This document shows, piece after piece, positions 37,180 through 45,499 of a stretch of 64,000 nt of DNA. Position 1 is the first letter of the stretch. Each line of letters begins with the position of its first letter. The stretch comes from Tepidamorphaceae bacterium (GTDB lineage Bacteria; Pseudomonadota; Alphaproteobacteria; Rhizobiales; Tepidamorphaceae): assembly GCA_028279445.1 (NCBI GenBank), contig JANQNT010000023.1, forward strand, positions 310,001 to 374,000. Direction: 5' to 3'. The notes under the pieces are model-generated. The model worked only from the letters and a program-made list of their open reading frames with translations. It was not told the origin of the DNA and made no database searches. Position numbers and translations under genes: made by a program.

Positions 37180-37592
37180 CAGCGGTCCTCCTCCAGCGCG
37201 ATGGCGATGGCCACGATGGTGCCGACCACCACCATGTAGACGCCGATATCGAACAGCACGACGGTGGAGAGGTACTTGAAGTCCGGCGCGAAGGCGGGAA
37301 ACCACCACTGACCGGTCAGGAAGGCATCGCCGAAGACCAGCGAGGCGACACCGCTGGCACCGGCGAGGAACAGGCCGATGCCGGCGATGGCGATCGGATG
37401 CAGGATCAGTGCGCGGCGGGCGGCCCTGATCCCTTCCGCGATGGTGTAGGTGGCGAAGGCCGACGCGCCGATCAGCCCGCCGATGAAACCGCCACCCGGC
37501 TCGTTGTGGCCACGCAGCAGGACGTAGATCGAGAACAGCACCGTCAGCGCGACGAGAAACGGCGTGGCGGTGCGCAGGACCAGGGAGTTCAT
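37179..37592 (-). CDS. mnhB: Mrp-type antiporter subunit B
   Basis: This is a 137-residue, four-helix protein of the MnhB family. The family block [20 protein letters not shown] is present after the first helix, and [20 protein letters not shown] near the end. It overlaps mnhA by 4 bp. It is part of the coupled mnh operon. Confidence 0.92.
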
Positions 37593-39913
37593 CGACCCTC
37601 CTCCGCCTGCCGCCCGCGCCGCTCCGGCCGGCCGTCCGAGAACGCCAGCAGCGACAGCACCGCGACGCCGGCGATCACCACCACGGCGATCTCGCCGAAG
37701 GTGTCGAGCGCGCGGAAGTCGACCAGGATGACGTTGACGATGTTGCGGCCGAAGGCTTCCGTATAGCTCTTCGCCGCGAAGTACTCGCTCAGGCCCAGAT
37801 CGAGCGGTCGGCTGGTGATCGACAGCAGCAGCACGGTCATGCAGGTGCCGATGGCGATACCGATGATGCCGTCACGCGTGGCGCGCGGAGCCCCGCGCCA
37901 GTCCCTGCCATAGACCGGCAGGCGGGCAATCACCAGCGCCAGGATGACGACCGACAGCGTTTCCACCATGAGCTGGGTAAATGCGAGATCGGGCGCGCCG
38001 AACAGCAGGAAGACAAAGGCAACGCCCAGGCCGAGCACACCCATGGCGAGGATGGCGATGAAGCGCGAGCGGGTCAGGATGATGGCCACGCCACCGGCCA
38101 GCGTGAATGCCGCGACGCCCCAGACGTAGAAGTTGGCCGCCGGGATCGTCAACGTCGCGGAGAAGCCGCCGACGAACCACAACGGCACGACCAGAGCTGC
38201 CGCCATGGCGAGGAAGCTGATCAGCAGGTAGTTGCGCAGGGTGCCGGTCTGCAGCCGCGCGGTGACCAGCCGCGCAAGCCCCACGACCGCGTCCATGAAC
38301 TGGTCGTAGCCCTTGTCGGGACCCCACAGGGGATCGAGCACGCGGGCGACGCCCGCGCGCAGCGCCTGCGATTGCCAGAAGATCAACGCGCCAAGCGCGA
38401 TCGTCGCGATGCTGAGATAAAGCGGTGACTTGAACCCGCCCCACAGATAGAGATCGACGGCAATCTCCCGCCCGCCGACCGCGGCCGCCGCCGGTCCAAT
38501 GAAGAGCTGCTCGGGAAGCATGTTCAGCACCCCGGCGGCCAGCCCGCACACGGCCAGCACGACGGGACCGAGCCACAGGCCCGGCGTGCCCTCGTGCGGG
38601 GCATGCGGCGTATCGCTTTGCGGACCAAGGAACGGCTTCGCGCCGACCAGGAAGGCCACCGCGAACATCAACGCGTTACCAAGGACGGCGATGGCCGTGA
38701 TCGCCAGCGGCCACAGCCCGTCGAGCGTTGCCTTGTAGGCGAATTCCTTGGCGATGAAGCCGAAGAAGGGCGGCAGCCCGGCCATCGACAGCGCCGCGAG
38801 GAGTGCGGCGGAGAAGGTGATGGGCATGGCGCGGCCAAGCCCCGACAGCCGCGTCACCTCGCGGGTGCCGGTCTCGTGGTCGATGCAGCCGGCGGCCATG
38901 AACAGCGCCCCCTTGAACAGCGAGTGGGCCAGCAGGTAGCCCATCGCCGCCTGGATCGCGATGTCGTGGCCAAGGCCGATCAGGAACACCAGCAGGCCGA
39001 GGCTGGCCACCGTGGTCTGCGCCAGCATCAGCTTGAGATCGGTGTTGCGCAGCGCCAGCACCGCGCCGACGAAGAAGGTCGCCGCGCCGAAGCTGACCAG
39101 CAGCACCTGCCAGATATCGGTGCCGCCGAGGCCGGGATTCATGCGCGCCAGCAGATAGACGCCTGCCTTCACCATGGTGGCCGAGTGCAGATAGGCACTG
39201 ACCGGTGTGGGCGCCTCCATGGCGTTGGGCAGCCAGAAGCTGAACGGCACCTGGGCGGACTTGGTGAAGGCGCCGGCCAGCACCAGCAGCAGCATGCCCA
39301 GATACCAGGGATGATTGCGCAGCAGTTCGCCCTGGACCAGCAGTTCGGAGAGTTCCATCGACCCGCCAACCTGCGCCATCAGCAGCAGACCGGCGAGCAG
39401 CAGCAGACCACCACCGCCGGTGACCACCAGCGCCTGCAGGGCAGCGCGGCGCGAACGCGCGTTCTCGTGGTTGAAGCCGATCAGCAGGAAGGAGGTGATC
39501 GAGGTCAACTCCCAGAACACGAACAGCGTCACCACGTTGTCGGCGAGCACCAGGCCCAGCATCGATCCCATGAACATCAGGATGAACATGAGGAAGCGGC
39601 CGAGATCGGCGTGGCCTTTGAGGTAAGCGCCGGCATAGAGCACGATGAAGGTGCCGATGAAGCTGATCAGCAGCGCGAACAGCAGGCTCAGGCCGTCGAC
39701 GTAAAACGACAGCGCGATGCCCGCCGAAGGAACCCAAGGTGTTGAAAAGACAAGTGTTTCGCCGGAGGCGACGGCGCCGATGAACTGCGCGAAGTAAAGC
39801 GTCAGCGCGGCTGGCAGCAGCGCCAGCACAAGGCCGACGCGATCGCCCGCGATGCCGCGCACCGTAGGCGCAAACACAGCGACAACAAACGGTGCAAGCA
39901 AAGCGGCAAGCAT
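37589..39913 (-). CDS. mnhA: Mrp-type antiporter subunit A (with MbhD/E-like C-terminus)
   Basis: This is a 774-residue protein, the largest Mrp subunit. Residues about 1-520 are NuoL-like, with [16 protein letters not shown] and [20 protein letters not shown], the channel block. Residues about 620-760 add the MbhD-like ([18 protein letters not shown]) and MbhE-like ([17 protein letters not shown]) segments. It exchanges Na+ for H+ together with the other subunits. It is the first gene of the operon, reading away from 40 kb. Confidence 0.94.
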
Positions 39914-40272
39914 CGGCTGTCGACCCCTTCGATGTCGGCGGGCCTGGTTCGCCAGGACAGGCGAACAACGAAACGCCCCGGGCAGGACCGTGCGGTCTTG
40001 GTTTTAGAAAAGGCCGCCTCCCCGCAAGGGACAGCAGCCTCGTCACGTTTGTTTTTGTCCGCAAGGCCCGAGGTCGCGCCCCCGTGCGCCTGCACCCTTC
40101 CATCTAGTTCCCACTCCGGAACGAGGCAAGCCTCAGGGCAGCCGATTTTGCCGATTCGGGCAACAGTGCGCCATGTGTCGCGCCCGAACGGAAAAGCCGG
40201 CCGTGGTGTCAGAAACGAAATGACCCGCCGGCCAATGGGTGACATTAATGGGGACCGGACGGGGGACGACCG
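39914..40272. other. intergenic region between mnhA and the monooxygenase gene
   Basis: This is a 359-bp divergent gap. A hairpin GTTCGCC-AGGACA-GGCGAAC lies at 39947-39966, in the leader of mnhA. A promoter for each side must lie here, but no consensus box or operator was recognised. Weak ribosome sites precede both genes. Confidence 0.5.
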
Positions 40273-41559
40273 ATGGCGATTGAGGACGTGGACACGCTGG
40301 TTGTCGGGGGCGGTCAGGCCGGCCTCGCCATGAGCGAGCATCTGAGTGGCTGCGGTGTGCCGCATCTGGTGCTGGAGCGCCACCGCATCGCCGAACGCTG
40401 GCGCTCGGAGCGATGGGATTCGCTCGTCGCCAACGGTCCGGCCTGGCACGACCGCTTTCCGGGTGCGACATTCGACATGGACCCCGAGGCGTTCCCGCCC
40501 AAAGAGACCATCGCCGACTACTTCGAGGCCTACGCGGCGAAGATCGCCGCCCCCGTCCGCTGCGGCGTGGAGGTGATCCGCGTGCGCCAGCACGACGGCC
40601 GGCCGGGCTTTCGCGTCGAGACATCCGATGGCGCCATCGACGCCACCAACGTGGTCGCCGCGACGGGACCGTTCCAGCGTCCCGTCATCCCGCCGCTGGT
40701 GCCCGAGGATGCCGGGCTTTTGCAGATCCACTCGAACGGCTACCGCAACCCCCGGCAGTTGCCGGAGGGTGCCGTGCTGGTGGTGGGCGCGGGATCTTCG
40801 GGAACGCAGATCGCCGAGGAAATCCTCCAGTCGGGACGGCAAGTCTACCTGTCGGTCGGCAAGCACGGCCGCCCGCCGCGGCGCTATCGCGGACGCGATT
40901 TCGTCTGGTGGCTCGGCGTATTGGGCAAATGGGAGGCGGCCGCGATCGAACCGGGCCTGGAGCACGTCACCATCGCGGTGAGCGGGGCCAATGGCGGGCG
41001 CACCGTCGACTTCCGGCGGCTGGCCGCGCAGGGCATGACGCTTGTGGGGGTGACGCAGTCCTTCGACGACGGCGTGGCGCGCTTCGCGCCGGGCCTTGCC
41101 GACAATCTCGCGCAGGGCGACGCCGACTACCTCTCGGTGCTCGACGAGGCCGACGCCCATGTCGCGCGTAACGGCCTCGACCTGCCCGAAGAGCCCGAAG
41201 CGCGCGAGATCATGGCCGACCCGCCTTGCGTCAGCGATCCGATCCTCGAACTGGACCTGGCGGACGCCGGTATCTCCTCGATCATCTGGGCGACGGGCTA
41301 TGCGCTCGACTTCGGCTGGCTGGAGGTCGACGTCTTCGACGAGGCCGGCCAGCCGAAACACCATCGCGGCGTTTCCGCGCAGCCCGGCATCTACTTCCTG
41401 GGCCTGCCGTGGCTGTCGCGGCGCGGGTCCTCGTTCATCTGGGGTGTGTGGCACGACGCCAAGTACATCGCCGACCACATCGCCATCCAGCGCAACTACC
41501 TCAGCTATCGCCCCGGCGCCCACGGCACGGCGAAACCGCACGAAACACTCGGGGCCTGA
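40273..41559 (+). CDS. flavin-containing monooxygenase-like NAD(P)/FAD oxidoreductase
   Basis: This is a 428-residue protein with two Rossmann motifs: VGGGQAGLAMSEHL at about residue 12 (FAD) and VVGAGSSGTQIAEEI at about residue 177 (NADPH). The ATGPFQRP and the C-terminal YFLGLPWLSRRGSSFIWG blocks fit the CzcO/YUCCA-like group. It would hydroxylate or oxidise a nitrogen- or carbon-bearing substrate. It opens a four-gene run with a Rid protein, a DUF1028 protein and an M20 deacylase, so an amino or N-acyl compound is the likely substrate. Confidence 0.8.
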   Translation: MAIEDVDTLVVGGGQAGLAMSEHLSGCGVPHLVLERHRIAERWRSERWDSLVANGPAWHDRFPGATFDMDPEAFPPKETIADYFEAYAAKIAAPVRCGVEVIRVRQHDGRPGFRVETSDGAIDATNVVAATGPFQRPVIPPLVPEDAGLLQIHSNGYRNPRQLPEGAVLVVGAGSSGTQIAEEILQSGRQVYLSVGKHGRPPRRYRGRDFVWWLGVLGKWEAAAIEPGLEHVTIAVSGANGGRTVDFRRLAAQGMTLVGVTQSFDDGVARFAPGLADNLAQGDADYLSVLDEADAHVARNGLDLPEEPEAREIMADPPCVSDPILELDLADAGISSIIWATGYALDFGWLEVDVFDEAGQPKHHRGVSAQPGIYFLGLPWLSRRGSSFIWGVWHDAKYIADHIAIQRNYLSYRPGAHGTAKPHETLGA

Positions 41560-41583
41560 CCCCGCCCTGCATGGAGCCGCCCG

Positions 41584-42003
41584 ATGGCGCATCAACGCAT
41601 CCGCACCTTCAACACCAAGGACACCTATCCCGAGCAGAAGCTCGACAACGACCTGTGTCAGGCGGTGGTGGCGCGCGGGCGCACGGTGTTCCTGCGCGGA
41701 CAGGTCGCCCAGGACCTGGACACCGGCGAGAACGTCGCCCAGGGCGATGCGGGGGTGCAGGCCGCCAAGGCCATGGCCAACATCAAGCTGTTGATGGAGG
41801 AAGCCGGCGGCGGCATGGAGCATATCTGTCGCGTGGTGGTCTACCTGACCGATATCCGCTACCGGGAGGCGGTCTACCGGGAGATGGGTCGCTGGCTGAA
41901 GGGCGTCCATCCGGTATCGACCGGTCTCGTCGTGCCGGCGCTGGCGCGGCCCGAGTGGCTGGTAGAGATTGAAGCGACCGCCGTGATACCCGATGACGCA
42001 TGA
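41584..42003 (+). CDS. Rid-family protein (YjgF/YER057c/UK114), arginine-lacking
   Basis: This is a 139-residue protein of the Rid fold. The family C-terminus is LARPEWLVEIEATAVIP with the glutamate E130. The conserved PAR motif that carries the imine-hydrolysing arginine is PVS (residues 110-112). The arginine is missing, so it is not a RidA-type 2-aminoacrylate deaminase. Several Rid subfamilies lack the arginine and act in catabolic operons. It starts 24 bp after the monooxygenase gene, so it is co-transcribed. Confidence 0.8.
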   Translation: MAHQRIRTFNTKDTYPEQKLDNDLCQAVVARGRTVFLRGQVAQDLDTGENVAQGDAGVQAAKAMANIKLLMEEAGGGMEHICRVVVYLTDIRYREAVYREMGRWLKGVHPVSTGLVVPALARPEWLVEIEATAVIPDDA

Positions 42004-42005
42004 TC

Positions 42006-42036
42006 CCGAAAAGTGGGAACCGGTTTTCGGACAAGA
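42006..42036. repeat. dispersed palindromic repeat, copy 1
   Basis: CCGAAAA and TTTTCGG (42006-42012 and 42024-42030) bracket GTGGGAACCGG. The 24 bases at 42013-42036 are identical, in reverse orientation, to 49713-49736. This copy starts three bases after the Rid stop, where it could end transcription. Elements of this sequence are common in rhizobial genomes from memory. Confidence 0.65.
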
Positions 42037-42106
42037 TCATGCGCAAGCAAGAAAGCAGGCGCGCCGCTATGCAAATTGAATTGGCAGAACAGAAGATGGC
42101 CCGCCC

Positions 42107-42781
42107 ATGACCTTTTCGCTTGTCGCCCGCTGTCCGCAGACCGGCATGTTCGGTCTCGCCATATCATCGTCCTCGCCGGCCGTCGCGGCGCGCTGCGCGT
42201 TCGCACGCGCCGGCGTCGGAGCGGTTTCCAGCCAGAACATCACCGACCCGTCGCTCGGCCCGAAGATGCTCGACGCGATGCAGGCGGGAAAGAGCGCGGC
42301 GGACGCGATCGCTAACGCCACGGACGGTTATCCGCACACCGAATACCGCCAGCTTCTGGCCGTCGACAGGCATGGCGGCACCGCCATCCGTTCCGGCGAG
42401 CACGCGCTCGGCATCTGGGGCGAGGCCTTTGGCGAGAACGTCGCCTCGGCGGGAAATCTGCTGGAGAGCACCTCCATCCCGCAGGCCATCGTCGACGGTT
42501 TCCTGTCGGCCACCGGGCATCTCGGCGACCGGCTGATCGCGGCCATGCAGGCGGGTCTTGCCGCAGGCGGAGAGGCCGGACCAGTACGCTCCGCTGGCCT
42601 GATGATGGTCGACAAGCTGGACTGGCCGGTGACCGACCTGCGCTGCGACTGGTCGGACGAGTGCCCCATCGCGGAGCTGGCTAAGCTCTGGGACATCTAC
42701 AAGCCCGAGCTTGAGCCCTATGTGCGCCGCGCGCTCGATCCGGGAAACGCGCCGGCCTTCGGCGTTGCCGGCGACGCATAG
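42107..42781 (+). CDS. DUF1028 family protein
   Basis: This is a 224-residue protein of the DUF1028 family, an Ntn-hydrolase-like fold without proven chemistry. Family blocks are TFSLVARCPQTGMFGLAISS, GAVSSQNITDPSLG and YRQLLAVDRHGG, and the mid part reads GNLLESTSIPQAIVDGF. ATG 42107 begins the conserved start. It lies between the Rid and M20 genes and probably belongs to the same pathway. Some family members are fused to peptidoglycan-binding modules; this one is not. Confidence 0.85.
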   Translation: MTFSLVARCPQTGMFGLAISSSSPAVAARCAFARAGVGAVSSQNITDPSLGPKMLDAMQAGKSAADAIANATDGYPHTEYRQLLAVDRHGGTAIRSGEHALGIWGEAFGENVASAGNLLESTSIPQAIVDGFLSATGHLGDRLIAAMQAGLAAGGEAGPVRSAGLMMVDKLDWPVTDLRCDWSDECPIAELAKLWDIYKPELEPYVRRALDPGNAPAFGVAGDA

Positions 42782-42824
42782 GATCGCGCTTGCCGCCGAC
42801 CGAGGGCCGCGATAGGTGGGGGAC

Positions 42825-43988
42825 ATGACCCGCTCCATCGAGATTCTCGAACGGCTGATCGCGTTTCCCACCGTGAGCGCCGACAGCAATCTTGCACTGA
42901 TCGACTACGCGCAGGAGCTGTTGAACGCGGCAGGCTTCGCCACCCATCGCCTGCCCGACGAGACCGGCGAGAAGGCTGGCCTGTTCGCAAGCCTTGGTCC
43001 CGAGGGCCTCGGCCCCGATGGTCCCGGCGGCGTCATGCTGTCGGGCCACACAGACGTGGTGCCGGTCACCGGCCAGGCCTGGACGCGCGAACCCTTCACG
43101 CTGACCGATGGCGGCGACAGGCTCTACGGGCGCGGCACCACCGACATGAAGGGGTTCGTGGCCTGCGCGTTGGCCGCAGCGGAACGCGCGGCGAGCGCTC
43201 CGCTCAACCGACCATTGAAGCTGGCGCTGTCCTATGACGAGGAGGTTGGCTGCATCGGCATCCCGAAGATGCTCGAACGCCTCGACGGGACGGTGGGCCG
43301 GCCGGACCTCTGCATCGTCGGCGAGCCGACCTCGATGGCGATCGCGCTGGGGCACAAGGGCAAGGCGGCGCTGCGCGCCATCTGCCGCGGCACCGCGGGC
43401 CACTCGGCGATGGCGCCGCTGTTCGTCAACGCGCTCCATCTGGCCTGCGACTTCGTCGCCGAGCTGCGCAAGCTGCAGGGGAGAATCGTCGAAACCGGCC
43501 TGCGCGACGAGGCTTACGACGTGCCCTACACGACGCTGCATGTGGGCCGGCTCGAGGGCGGACGGGCACTCAACATCGTGCCGGATACGGCAATCGTGGA
43601 TTTCGAGTTCCGCCATCTGGCCGGCGACAGCGCCGATGTGCTGCGCGCGAAAATCGAGGCAGCGGCGGAGCGGATCGCCGCAGGCTATCGCGACCGCTTC
43701 GCGGGTGCAGCCATCGAGATCAGCGACATCTTCGCCTATCCCGGCCTCGACGTAACCGAAGACGACCGGTCCGTCGCGGACATGCTCGCGCTGCTGCCGG
43801 AGGCGGGACTCACCAAGGTCGCCTTCGGCACGGAGGCCGGCTGTTTCGCCGATGTTGGCGTGCCGGCGCTGGTCTGCGGCCCCGGCAACATGGACCAGGG
43901 CCACAAGCCCGACGAGTTCGTGGCAAAAGACCAGCTCGCCCAGTGCGATACGCTGCTGGACCGGGTGATTGAGGGGCTGCGGGACTGA
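42825..43988 (+). CDS. argE: M20 deacylase, ArgE type
   Basis: This is a 387-residue zinc-dependent amidohydrolase of the acetylornithine deacetylase family. Metal ligands are in GHTDVVP (H, D) and YDEEVGCIG; GRGTTDMKG is the second metal block, and FGTEAGCF is near the end. ATG 42825 follows AGGTGGGGG; an earlier GTG at 42816 is less likely. In this context it may cleave an N-acyl amino acid from a catabolic pathway rather than serve arginine synthesis. The operon does not contain other arg genes. The symbol follows the family name and not a proven reaction. Confidence 0.85.
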   Translation: MTRSIEILERLIAFPTVSADSNLALIDYAQELLNAAGFATHRLPDETGEKAGLFASLGPEGLGPDGPGGVMLSGHTDVVPVTGQAWTREPFTLTDGGDRLYGRGTTDMKGFVACALAAAERAASAPLNRPLKLALSYDEEVGCIGIPKMLERLDGTVGRPDLCIVGEPTSMAIALGHKGKAALRAICRGTAGHSAMAPLFVNALHLACDFVAELRKLQGRIVETGLRDEAYDVPYTTLHVGRLEGGRALNIVPDTAIVDFEFRHLAGDSADVLRAKIEAAAERIAAGYRDRFAGAAIEISDIFAYPGLDVTEDDRSVADMLALLPEAGLTKVAFGTEAGCFADVGVPALVCGPGNMDQGHKPDEFVAKDQLAQCDTLLDRVIEGLRD

Positions 43989-44066
43989 GCGACGCGGCGC
44001 GGCGTTGCGCGCACCTGCTACATGCTAGGGTTGCGCAACCTGCAACCAGCCCGGAACCGATCCGCC

Positions 44067-44951
44067 ATGCTGAGACCGCTCGCCATCATTGCCGCGCTGT
44101 GCTTGCCGCTGGCCTGGGCTGGCGCGGATGAGTCCAAGACCGAGCAGGAAGAAACCTACGACCTGACGATCCGCGACAGCGATCCCGAGCGCTGGGCGGA
44201 AATCCGCAGCCAGCGGCTGGGTCATCTGTTCAGACCCAGTCCAAGCCTGTCGCCGGATCTGGTGGATGCCTACATCGCGGAGATGAAAAGTGGCCGCTTC
44301 ACGGCCCTAACGGCGCTTTGGACCATCGATCAGCGGCTTCAGTACAACGCGGCGATCCTGAGCGGGAACTGCGCGACTGCGGAGAGGATGCTGATCGAGG
44401 AATACATCGCTCATGGCGCGGAACTGGAGCCGCTGCGGCGCGACGCCTCCCTGAAAGCGAGATGGCGGCGCCAGATCGCCAAGGACCTGTTCCCCGAGGC
44501 AATCACCTGCGTGCTGGCGGATGAAATCCGCATGATCGACGAGATGATCACCTGGGCCGGACTTCCACCGCACCCCTTCAAGGTGCGCTCAAACGACGAC
44601 GAATTTGACGTGCCCGGCGGGCATACCGGCAGCATCTATTTCGAGCGCGACTGGCGGCTGGGACTGCTGTACGACATCGGCTCACCGCTCGACACGCACT
44701 ACGTGCCGGCGCAGGTGGTGCTGGCGGAGCTGTCCCTGTCGCTGCCAACCGTCGGACTCGACACCGATCTGGTCTACCTGATGCTGTGGGAGGCGAAACG
44801 GACCTGGCCGGAGTCGTTCCGCGTTGCGCCGCCGGTCCGCAAGGAGCGGATCGACGAACTGATGGCCATCGTCGAGCCAATGCTGACACCGGAGCAGCGG
44901 GCGTTCGTGGACAAGGCCACGGCTGAAGCCGTAGGCCTGGGCGATCAATAG
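44067..44951 (+). CDS. secreted protein of unknown function
   Basis: This is a 294-residue protein with an export signal (MLRPLAIIAALCLPLAWAGA) and a hydrophilic, acidic and tryptophan-containing mature part. No domain is recognised. ATG 44067 is chosen because the signal starts there; an ATG at 44022 in frame is less likely. The 3' end overlaps the convergent gene by 7 bp. A periplasmic place is inferred, not shown. Confidence 0.6.
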   Translation: MLRPLAIIAALCLPLAWAGADESKTEQEETYDLTIRDSDPERWAEIRSQRLGHLFRPSPSLSPDLVDAYIAEMKSGRFTALTALWTIDQRLQYNAAILSGNCATAERMLIEEYIAHGAELEPLRRDASLKARWRRQIAKDLFPEAITCVLADEIRMIDEMITWAGLPPHPFKVRSNDDEFDVPGGHTGSIYFERDWRLGLLYDIGSPLDTHYVPAQVVLAELSLSLPTVGLDTDLVYLMLWEAKRTWPESFRVAPPVRKERIDELMAIVEPMLTPEQRAFVDKATAEAVGLGDQ

Positions 44952-45355
44952 CACCGCTCGTCGCAGCCGTGCCGGCGCAGAACAGCACGAGAACGGGCGA
45001 TGTCCATTTCATCCAGTTGGATATTCTTCTCCTTGTCGGCGATTTTCGCTTGTTCGGCGTCGATCTCTCGATCGATCTGCCGCATCTGAGATTTGATATA
45101 CGCACGCGCCGCTTCAACCGTCGCCTGGCCGGTTGACCGGGCGATTGATGCGGCACGCCCACCCAGCGACAACAGGCTGGCACCCAAATCGAATTTGAAC
45201 AGTGTATCGAGCATGTCCTGCCAAGCATCATGCTTGGGGCGCAATCGATCCTGTATCCTGTCCATCATTCGGCGGATGGCCAAGCGTGACTTGTCGATCC
45301 TGCGCTTGCGGTTCCTGATGTTCTCGTTGGCGCGGGCGCATATCTCCGGGTCCAT
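44945..45355 (-). CDS. coiled-coil protein of unknown function
   Basis: This is a 136-residue protein rich in basic and acidic residues, with helical heptad-like stretches at about residues 10-40 and 90-125 and a glycine- and alanine-rich part (LGGRAASIARSTG) between. It ends RRHGCDERCY. No domain is recognised. ATG 45355 is chosen since GGAGAG precedes it by 6 bases; in-frame starts at 45361 and 45478 exist. Its codon use is less GC-biased than its neighbours. It overlaps the convergent upstream gene by 7 bp. Its role is unknown. Confidence 0.5.
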   Translation of the reverse strand: MDPEICARANENIRNRKRRIDKSRLAIRRMMDRIQDRLRPKHDAWQDMLDTLFKFDLGASLLSLGGRAASIARSTGQATVEAARAYIKSQMRQIDREIDAEQAKIADKEKNIQLDEMDIARSRAVLRRHGCDERCY

Positions 45356-45499
45356 GGCCATCTCTCCGATATACGAATAAATTCCTATGATGACACGACC
45401 TTCATCACCCTCGGATAAGTTCCCGCGATTTCTGATTTCACATGGCTTTCGAGCCAAAACCCGCGCAATTCGCCGCACTCAAGCGTCACCAAATCGCCC

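What the first reader, a model, noticed from the sequence alone, without database searches (positions are those of the whole stretch)
40273..43988. Monooxygenase, arginine-less Rid, DUF1028 and M20 deacylase: unexplained four-gene group
The four families together suggest oxidation and deacylation of an N-bearing compound. The Rid protein has PVS in place of PAR, so it is not a 2-aminoacrylate deaminase, and DUF1028 has no proven reaction. The group may be a small undescribed pathway.
Basis: inference. Interest (0 to 1): 0.5.

Follow-up and report, generated by a model that had tools for sequence, protein, structure and literature searches.

The report
Histamine breakdown genes, lower half (hinFLHG)
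These four genes look like the known set that bacteria use to turn imidazoleacetate, a breakdown product of histamine, into the amino acid aspartate, so the group is largely explained, although two of its enzymes still seem to lack a proven reaction.

Summary
In detail: four co-directional ORFs at 40273-43988 encode an FAD monooxygenase, an arginine-less Rid protein, a DUF1028 protein and an M20 (ArgE-like) deacylase. The reading as an undescribed pathway does not hold. The set matches, by family and gene order, hinF-hinL-hinH-hinG of Pseudomonas putida U and P. aeruginosa (PA5393-PA5390), which a review credits with converting imidazole-4-acetate to aspartate (labels). Independent context agrees: relatives carry nearby a histamine dehydrogenase homologue (1197.6 bits to 6DE6), aldehyde dehydrogenase and LysR genes. 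An Arthrobacter plasmid adds a copper amine oxidase, aldehyde dehydrogenase and aspartase. The row of four also occurs in Actinomycetota, Beta- and Gammaproteobacteria. The window's genome shows no recognisable histamine-specific upper pathway, so it may use imidazoleacetate itself. Still open is which of HinL (Rid, Ser for Arg) and HinH (DUF1028, Thr2 at the Ntn nucleophile position) opens the imidazolone ring and which removes the imino nitrogen. No Pseudomonas Hin sequence was available for direct comparison. New member of a known kind; modest interest.

The parts
40273..41559 (+). hinF-like FAD/NAD(P)H monooxygenase (proposed imidazole-4-acetate monooxygenase, EC 1.14.13.5)
   Evidence: families; homologues at 55-73% in related genomes; HinF label from PMC6467879 Table 3
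41584..42003 (+). hinL-like Rid protein, Ser112 in place of the RidA arginine, Glu128 kept
   Evidence: alignment to solved Rid proteins; S112, T113 and E128 invariant in 87 of 87
42107..42781 (+). hinH-like DUF1028 protein, N-terminal-Thr (Ntn) hydrolase fold
   Evidence: Met1, Thr2 and Ser4 invariant in 91 of 91; model and fold matches
42816..43988 (+). hinG-like M20/ArgE-family deacylase (proposed N-formyl-L-aspartate deformylase, EC 3.5.1.8)
   Evidence: H78, E142, E143 and H363 invariant, D80 and D110 69 of 70, in the M20 alignment of 71 rows

Best explanation
The group is a hinFLHG-type operon, the lower half of histamine catabolism. HinF oxidises imidazole-4-acetate with O2 and NAD(P)H to imidazoloneacetate; three hydrolytic steps follow: ring opening to N-formimino-L-aspartate, deimination to N-formyl-L-aspartate plus ammonia, and deformylation by HinG (M20) to L-aspartate plus formate. 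I assign ring opening, an amide hydrolysis, to HinH (DUF1028, Thr2 as nucleophile) and deimination, hydrolysis of a C=N bond with release of ammonia, to HinL (Rid); this split is inferred, about 60:40 over the reverse. In this genome no histamine-specific upper pathway was recognised, so the substrate is probably imidazoleacetate itself, taken up or made by generic amine and aldehyde enzymes. Shown here: the families, the order, the clustering, the residues and the predicted fold. Taken from papers: the link to histamine and the EC numbers of HinF and HinG. Recalled: the chemical intermediates and the deiminase step. Inferred: that the window's genes do this.
For: Same four families in the same order as hinF, hinL, hinH, hinG = PA5393, PA5392, PA5391, PA5390, 'enzymes for the conversion of ImAA to aspartic acid'; labels FAD-monooxygenase EC 1.14.13.5, enamine deaminase, amidase, EC 3.5.1.8 amidase. 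Six steps from histamine to aspartate, two of them for an aminotransferase/oxidase and an aldehyde dehydrogenase, leave four steps for these four proteins. Genes found within the stretches of 84 related loci: OYE-type flavoprotein in 45, which scores 1197.6 bits to histamine dehydrogenase 6DE6; LysR 70, ALDH 34, class III aminotransferase 14, PotA-type ABC gene 36. Arthrobacter plasmid: ALDH, primary-amine oxidase, TetR, LysR, FMO, Rid, DUF1028, M20, aspartate ammonia-lyase. FMO, Rid, DUF1028, M20 in a row also in Ideonella (50), Mycolicibacterium (51) and Pantoea (55). DUF1028 model: in HslV 1m4y and several proteasome beta chains the structural alignment starts with model residue 2 on chain residue 1.
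Against: No Pseudomonas Hin protein sequence was available, so the identity rests on family, order and context, and HinH = DUF1028 is inferred by position. The window's genome has no histamine dehydrogenase (best 29%, partial), no copper amine oxidase, class III aminotransferases at 39% or less, aldehyde dehydrogenases at 54% or less, and no close homologue of the linked LysR (best 28% over 241 residues; shorter matches up to 41%); no LysR or transporter gene was seen next to the group. M20 also passes an acetylornithine deacetylase cut-off. In the DUF1028-selected loci M20 is often further away or inverted: FMO, Rid, DUF1028, M20 contiguous in 3 of 80, although M20 is in the stretch in 62 of 80. 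2 of 17 HinF-bearing genomes lack Rid and DUF1028 in the fetched stretch. Four DUF1028-bearing genomes have no HinF-type FMO match above 41%.
Confidence: 0.88

Rival explanations
1. Homarine (N-methylpicolinate) catabolism: FMO opens the pyridinium ring, ALDH and a reductase follow, and M20 or DUF1028 deformylates N-formyl-N-methylglutamate (my own sketch).
For: [quoted passage not shown] Ruegeria pomeroyi draws homarine down (PMC12817926 passage), and several Ruegeria genomes carry the cluster.
Against: The OYE-type neighbour is a histamine dehydrogenase homologue; amine oxidase and aspartase neighbours on the Arthrobacter plasmid fit histamine and aspartate; the hin operon already has this gene order. 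The homarine paper itself is not held, so its genes were not compared.
Confidence: 0.04
2. A related imidazole or N-heterocyclic acid other than imidazole-4-acetate (for example a methylated imidazoleacetate or imidazolelactate) is the true substrate in this clade, with the same four-step logic.
For: The window's genome lacks a recognisable upper histamine pathway; some relatives hold GbcA-like Rieske oxygenase genes before Rid or after DUF1028 (RieskeA in 23, RieskeB in 12 of 84 loci), which may mean other substrates.
Against: HinF-type FMOs are conserved at 55-73% with mostly the same partners, and 45 of 84 loci hold the histamine dehydrogenase homologue.
Confidence: 0.07
3. A chance run of unrelated genes: M20 is the biosynthetic ArgE and the rest are general repair enzymes.
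For: M20 is over the TIGR01892 cut-off.
Against: The genome has a second, better-scoring TIGR01892 match at G000:C27:54747 (379.1 against 357.1 bits); FMO, Rid and DUF1028 stand together in 62 of 80 and 14 of 17 loci of two samples.
Confidence: 0.01

Closest known systems
hinFLHG operon (hin2 of Pseudomonas putida U; PA5393-PA5390 of P. aeruginosa PAO1)
   Same: Four genes, same order; monooxygenase, enamine deaminase, amidase and EC 3.5.1.8 amidase / peptidic bond hydrolase labels
Histamine loci of Brevibacterium (PMC6467879) and of an Arthrobacter plasmid (NZ_CP012478.1)
   Same: HinF, HinL and HinH homologues with neighbouring locus tags in Brevibacterium; FMO, Rid, DUF1028, M20 in a row on the Arthrobacter plasmid
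   Different: Those carry an amine oxidase for the first step, not found in the window's genome; Brevibacterium HinG lies elsewhere by its locus tag
TIGR04046 (MSMEG_0569 family flavin-dependent oxidoreductase)
   Same: Best-scoring NCBIfam model of the FMO, 373 bits over nearly its whole length
   Different: Below its cut-off of 498.35
2IMH (SPO2555, a DUF1028 protein of Silicibacter pomeroyi)
   Same: Same fold: VIA-align Z 28.2, 208 residues, rmsd 2.9
   Different: 26-27% identity; titled only as a DUF1028 protein
PA3499 (2IG8), a solved Rid protein of unnamed function
   Same: Also has Ser in place of the arginine and keeps the Glu, so the Ser-for-Arg change is not unique to HinL
   Different: 37.8 bits only; 'Hypothetical protein' by its title

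Membership tests
hinFLHG operon | Four genes on one strand in the order monooxygenase, Rid, third hydrolase, peptidase-type deacylase | tested here: met
   against the order PA5393 to PA5390
hinFLHG operon | HinH is a DUF1028 protein | tested here: inconclusive
   No Hin sequence at hand; inferred from gene order and from the Rid-DUF1028-M20 order in annotated records
hinFLHG operon | Upper pathway HinC (aminotransferase) and HinD (aldehyde dehydrogenase) in the genome | tested here: inconclusive
   Only generic homologues: ALDH 54%, aminotransferase 39%, both measured against proteins of related loci, not of Pseudomonas; no histamine dehydrogenase or copper amine oxidase
hinFLHG operon | Controlled by a LysR regulator responding to imidazoleacetate (HinK) | tested here: inconclusive
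   A LysR gene in the stretch in 70 of 84 related loci, none of the linked type in the window's genome; in PAO1 hinK (PA0218) is not beside hinFLHG either
hinFLHG operon | Conversion of imidazole-4-acetate to aspartate | not testable with these tools
   needs growth tests and enzymes
RidA imine deaminase subfamily | Conserved arginine essential for imine hydrolysis | tested here: not met
   Ser112 in 87 of 87, aligned with the arginine of 3R0P, 2B33 and 3K0T; requirement from PMC4433059 passages
TIGR04046 flavin oxidoreductase | Score over the curated cut-off | tested here: not met
   373 against 498.35 bits
N-terminal-nucleophile (Ntn) hydrolase fold for DUF1028 | Ntn fold with Thr, Ser or Cys at the mature N terminus | tested here: met
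   Model mean pLDDT 85.9 from 16 rows; permuted taspase-1 Z 15.6, HslV Z about 11.5, model residue 2 paired with chain residue 1 in 1m4y and several proteasome rows; T2 invariant 91 of 91. Removal of Met1 and catalysis are not shown
ArgE (acetylornithine deacetylase) | Score over the curated cut-off | tested here: met
   NF005710 485.7 over 412; TIGR01892 357.4 over 297.7. The substrate is not settled by this

The most novel reading that the evidence does not exclude
The operon supplies the sequences of the two steps between imidazoloneacetate and N-formylaspartate: DUF1028 is an N-terminal-threonine imidazoloneacetate amidohydrolase and the arginine-less Rid is a formiminoaspartate deiminase, giving a reaction to a DUF family and to a Rid type thought not to hydrolyse imines; and some bacteria, like this one, use imidazoleacetate without a dedicated histamine pathway.
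Probability: 0.4. Interest if true: 0.45.

Novelty: new member of a known kind. Interest (0 to 1): 0.25.

Why it matters
It removes a supposed unknown pathway from the list and ties one clade of a domain of unknown function, and one clade of Rid proteins without the catalytic arginine, to a defined catabolic route with named substrates, which makes both directly testable. It also shows the hinF-L-H core in many genomes beyond Pseudomonas, among them numerous Rhodobacteraceae, Mesorhizobium and Bosea records and plasmids of Actinomycetota.

Tried and rejected
Homarine was my first hypothesis, from the ALDH, OYE-type and LysR neighbours in marine Rhodobacterales. It was dropped when the OYE-type protein proved to be a histamine dehydrogenase homologue. 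The homarine paper is not held; nothing of it was seen beyond a citing sentence and reference. A cluster of the TIGR04046 kind was considered for the FMO and dropped because the score is under the cut-off. Polyamine catabolism was considered because of the PuuC-like ALDH and the Pot-type transporter and dropped for the same reason as homarine. Searches for own-genome upper-pathway genes gave only generic enzymes; the two best ALDH neighbourhoods were only read by eye and showed no obvious hin genes. A sigma-70-type promoter scan of 39900-44100 found none (expected 0.3).

Limits before counts: one search keeps the best 80 of 121 related stretches, all chosen for DUF1028 similarity, so its counts describe DUF1028 neighbourhoods. 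Several loci end at contig edges. The FMO of L174 has a stop inside. Identity thresholds were set by me per gene (for example LysR 38%, PotA 40%, ALDH 55%), so LysR and PotA counts may include unrelated members. In two Actinomycetota plasmids the window's M20 query found no match over 70 bits although an M20 protein is annotated there. The conservation counts use best matches of at least 40% identity to the window proteins among 91 loci, so they describe this clade only. In the family sample (4 genomes) all 4 hold Rid, DUF1028 and M20, but only 2 have FMO, Rid, DUF1028 contiguous in that order.
Full report
Observation. Four + strand ORFs fill 40273-43988 with gaps of 24, 103 and 34 bases. They are a flavoprotein monooxygenase (428 aa), a Rid protein (139 aa), a DUF1028 protein (224 aa) and an M20 deacylase (390 aa). 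Upstream, divergently, lies a long ORF (37589-39913, - strand) that reads by eye like an Mrp-type antiporter subunit; it was not searched. Downstream follow two convergent ORFs without a Pfam or NCBIfam match at E <= 0.001 (44022-44951 +, 44945-45478 -), then an acetyl-CoA synthetase (ADP-forming)-type/GNAT fusion.

Clustering. A scan of one genome for each of 84,980 species with the DUF1028 protein gave 121 related stretches, of which the best 80 were kept. Of these 80 loci, 76 hold the Rid, 72 the FMO and 62 the M20 homologue; FMO, Rid and DUF1028 stand in that order on one strand in 62 and contiguously in 53; the M20 gene follows directly in 3. A sample not chosen through DUF1028: 249 genomes of the phylum searched with the FMO gave 18 with a match at E <= 1e-150, the window's own included. 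Stretches around the other 17 were fetched: 15 of 17 hold Rid and DUF1028, 14 of 17 have FMO, Rid, DUF1028 contiguous in order, 13 of 17 hold an M20 homologue, and 6 of 17 have the full row of four. The two without are L164, where the FMO stands near an OYE-type (histamine dehydrogenase-type) gene and LysR, and L175, a short contig with the most distant FMO (55%). In the window's own family 5 of 8 genomes, itself included, have an FMO at 63% or more, and the 4 others hold Rid, DUF1028 and M20 in the fetched stretch, 2 of 4 with the first three contiguous in this order.

The partners name the pathway. In 84 loci (the 80 plus the 4 of the family) the commonest further genes within the stretches are LysR (70), an OYE-type flavoprotein (45), a PotA-type ABC gene (36), a PuuC-like aldehyde dehydrogenase (34) and a class III aminotransferase (14). 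A representative of the OYE-type protein matches histamine dehydrogenase 6DE6 over its whole length with 1197.6 bits, then histamine dehydrogenase 3K30 with 842 and trimethylamine dehydrogenase with 526. On a plasmid of Arthrobacter sp. ERGS1:01 the row is aldehyde dehydrogenase, primary-amine oxidase, TetR, LysR, FMO, Rid, DUF1028, M20, aspartate ammonia-lyase (the amine oxidase scores best against phenylethylamine oxidase structures, so its substrate is not settled). Ideonella, Mycolicibacterium and Pantoea plasmids show FMO, Rid, DUF1028, M20 in a row, in Mycolicibacterium with aspartase matches just behind; Paracoccus seriniphilus has an aldehyde dehydrogenase and the OYE-type protein inserted before M20.

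Literature. A review (PMC8231116, passages seen) says that in P. putida U eleven Hin proteins degrade histamine through imidazole-4-acetate and, in six steps, to aspartate; that cluster hin2 is hinFLHG; and that in P. aeruginosa PAO1 hinF, hinL, hinH, hinG are PA5393, PA5392, PA5391, PA5390, controlled by HinK and named as the enzymes for conversion of imidazoleacetate to aspartate. PMC6467879 (passages with Table 3 seen) labels HinF EC 1.14.13.5 FAD-monooxygenase, HinL enamine deaminase, HinH amidase, HinG EC 3.5.1.8 amidase and HinI aspartate ammonia-lyase, and finds homologues in Brevibacterium. The primary papers (de la Torre 2018 and the P. aeruginosa study) were not seen. None of the passages names DUF1028, and no held paper contains the word. 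The review reports that hin genes were absent from sequenced Gram-positive bacteria at the time; the later paper and the plasmids above show them there.

Mechanism. The intermediates are recalled, not taken from a call: imidazole-4-acetate, imidazoloneacetate, N-formimino-L-aspartate, N-formyl-L-aspartate, L-aspartate. From imidazoloneacetate to aspartate three waters are added, with loss of ammonia and formate, and three proteins remain after HinF. HinG takes the last step by its label. Of the two middle steps, ring opening is the hydrolysis of a cyclic amide and suits an amidohydrolase; deimination hydrolyses a C=N bond and releases ammonia, which suits a Rid protein. I therefore assign ring opening to HinH and deimination to HinL, with about 60:40 confidence.

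Residues and fold. In 91 DUF1028 sequences Met1, Thr2 and Ser4 never vary. A model of the window protein (16 sequences, mean pLDDT 85.9, the five models ranging from 64.6 to 85.9) matches 2IMH, a solved DUF1028 protein, then proteasome-type chains (Foldseek); VIA-align gives 2IMH Z 28.2, permuted taspase-1 Z 15.6 and HslV Z about 11.5, and in HslV of Thermotoga (1m4y) and several proteasome beta chains the alignment begins with model residue 2 on chain residue 1. So Thr2, if exposed by removal of Met1, sits where the catalytic threonine of these hydrolases sits (the role of Thr1 there is recalled). In 87 Rid sequences Ser112 stands where 3R0P, 2B33 and 3K0T have the arginine, and Glu128 is kept (that Glu128 is the RidA catalytic glutamate rests on recalled numbering). 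PA3499 (2IG8) also has Ser there, so the change is not unique to this clade. PMC4433059 (passages) states that the arginine is essential for imine hydrolysis in RidA, and that Rid4 to Rid7 lack it, keep the glutamate and have unknown functions; on that view HinL would not hydrolyse imines, which speaks against my assignment unless formimino groups are handled differently. The M20 protein keeps the H, D, E-E and C-terminal H positions named under parts.

The window's genome. It has one DUF1028 match, no histamine dehydrogenase (best 29%, partial), no copper amine oxidase, aldehyde dehydrogenases at 54% or less and class III aminotransferases at 39% or less, all measured with proteins of related loci. 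A second ArgE-type protein scores higher than the window's (379.1 against 357.1 bits), so the window's M20 need not be the biosynthetic ArgE. The best aspartase-model match is under the cut-off (469.6 against 681.2 bits). The simplest reading is use of imidazoleacetate from outside or from generic amine oxidation.

Verdict. The group is, with high probability, the lower histamine pathway, whose genes were reported in 2018 according to the papers cited, in a new carrier; interest is modest and rests on the two middle enzymes. The main weakness is that no authentic Pseudomonas Hin sequence could be compared.

Noticed in passing
L037, L038, L073 (and L025): Four DUF1028-bearing genomes (metagenome-assembled) have no HinF-type FMO (no match, or best 41%, 35% and 31%); in three of them an HpaB-type monooxygenase gene lies upstream of DUF1028 on the same strand. 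It may replace HinF; three of the four (L025, L037, L038) also show no Rid in the stretch. The genomes may be incomplete.
   Followed up: partly
for example L080:6325-7560 and L080:8539-9789: GbcA-like Rieske oxygenase genes stand before Rid or after DUF1028 in many loci (RieskeA in 23, RieskeB in 12 of 84); the four such genomes without an FMO in the stretch (L021, L075, L079, L080) have one elsewhere at 62-71%. Role unknown.
   Followed up: partly
plasmid records, for example L136: 105 Klebsiella and 7 Escherichia plasmid records have a DUF1028 match (50.7-51.6% in the rows listed); in the one E. coli plasmid fetched, Rid, DUF1028 and ArgE stand in a row behind an IS481-type transposase, with no FMO match in the 16.7 kb.
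   Followed up: partly
window 44022-44951 and 44945-45478: Two convergent ORFs (309 and 177 aa) downstream of the group have no Pfam or NCBIfam match at E <= 0.001.
   Followed up: no
L056:2975-3943: An arginase-family protein in the stretch, over the agmatinase cut-off and with 132 bits (under the cut-off) to formimidoylglutamase; a possible alternative for the formimino step.
   Followed up: no
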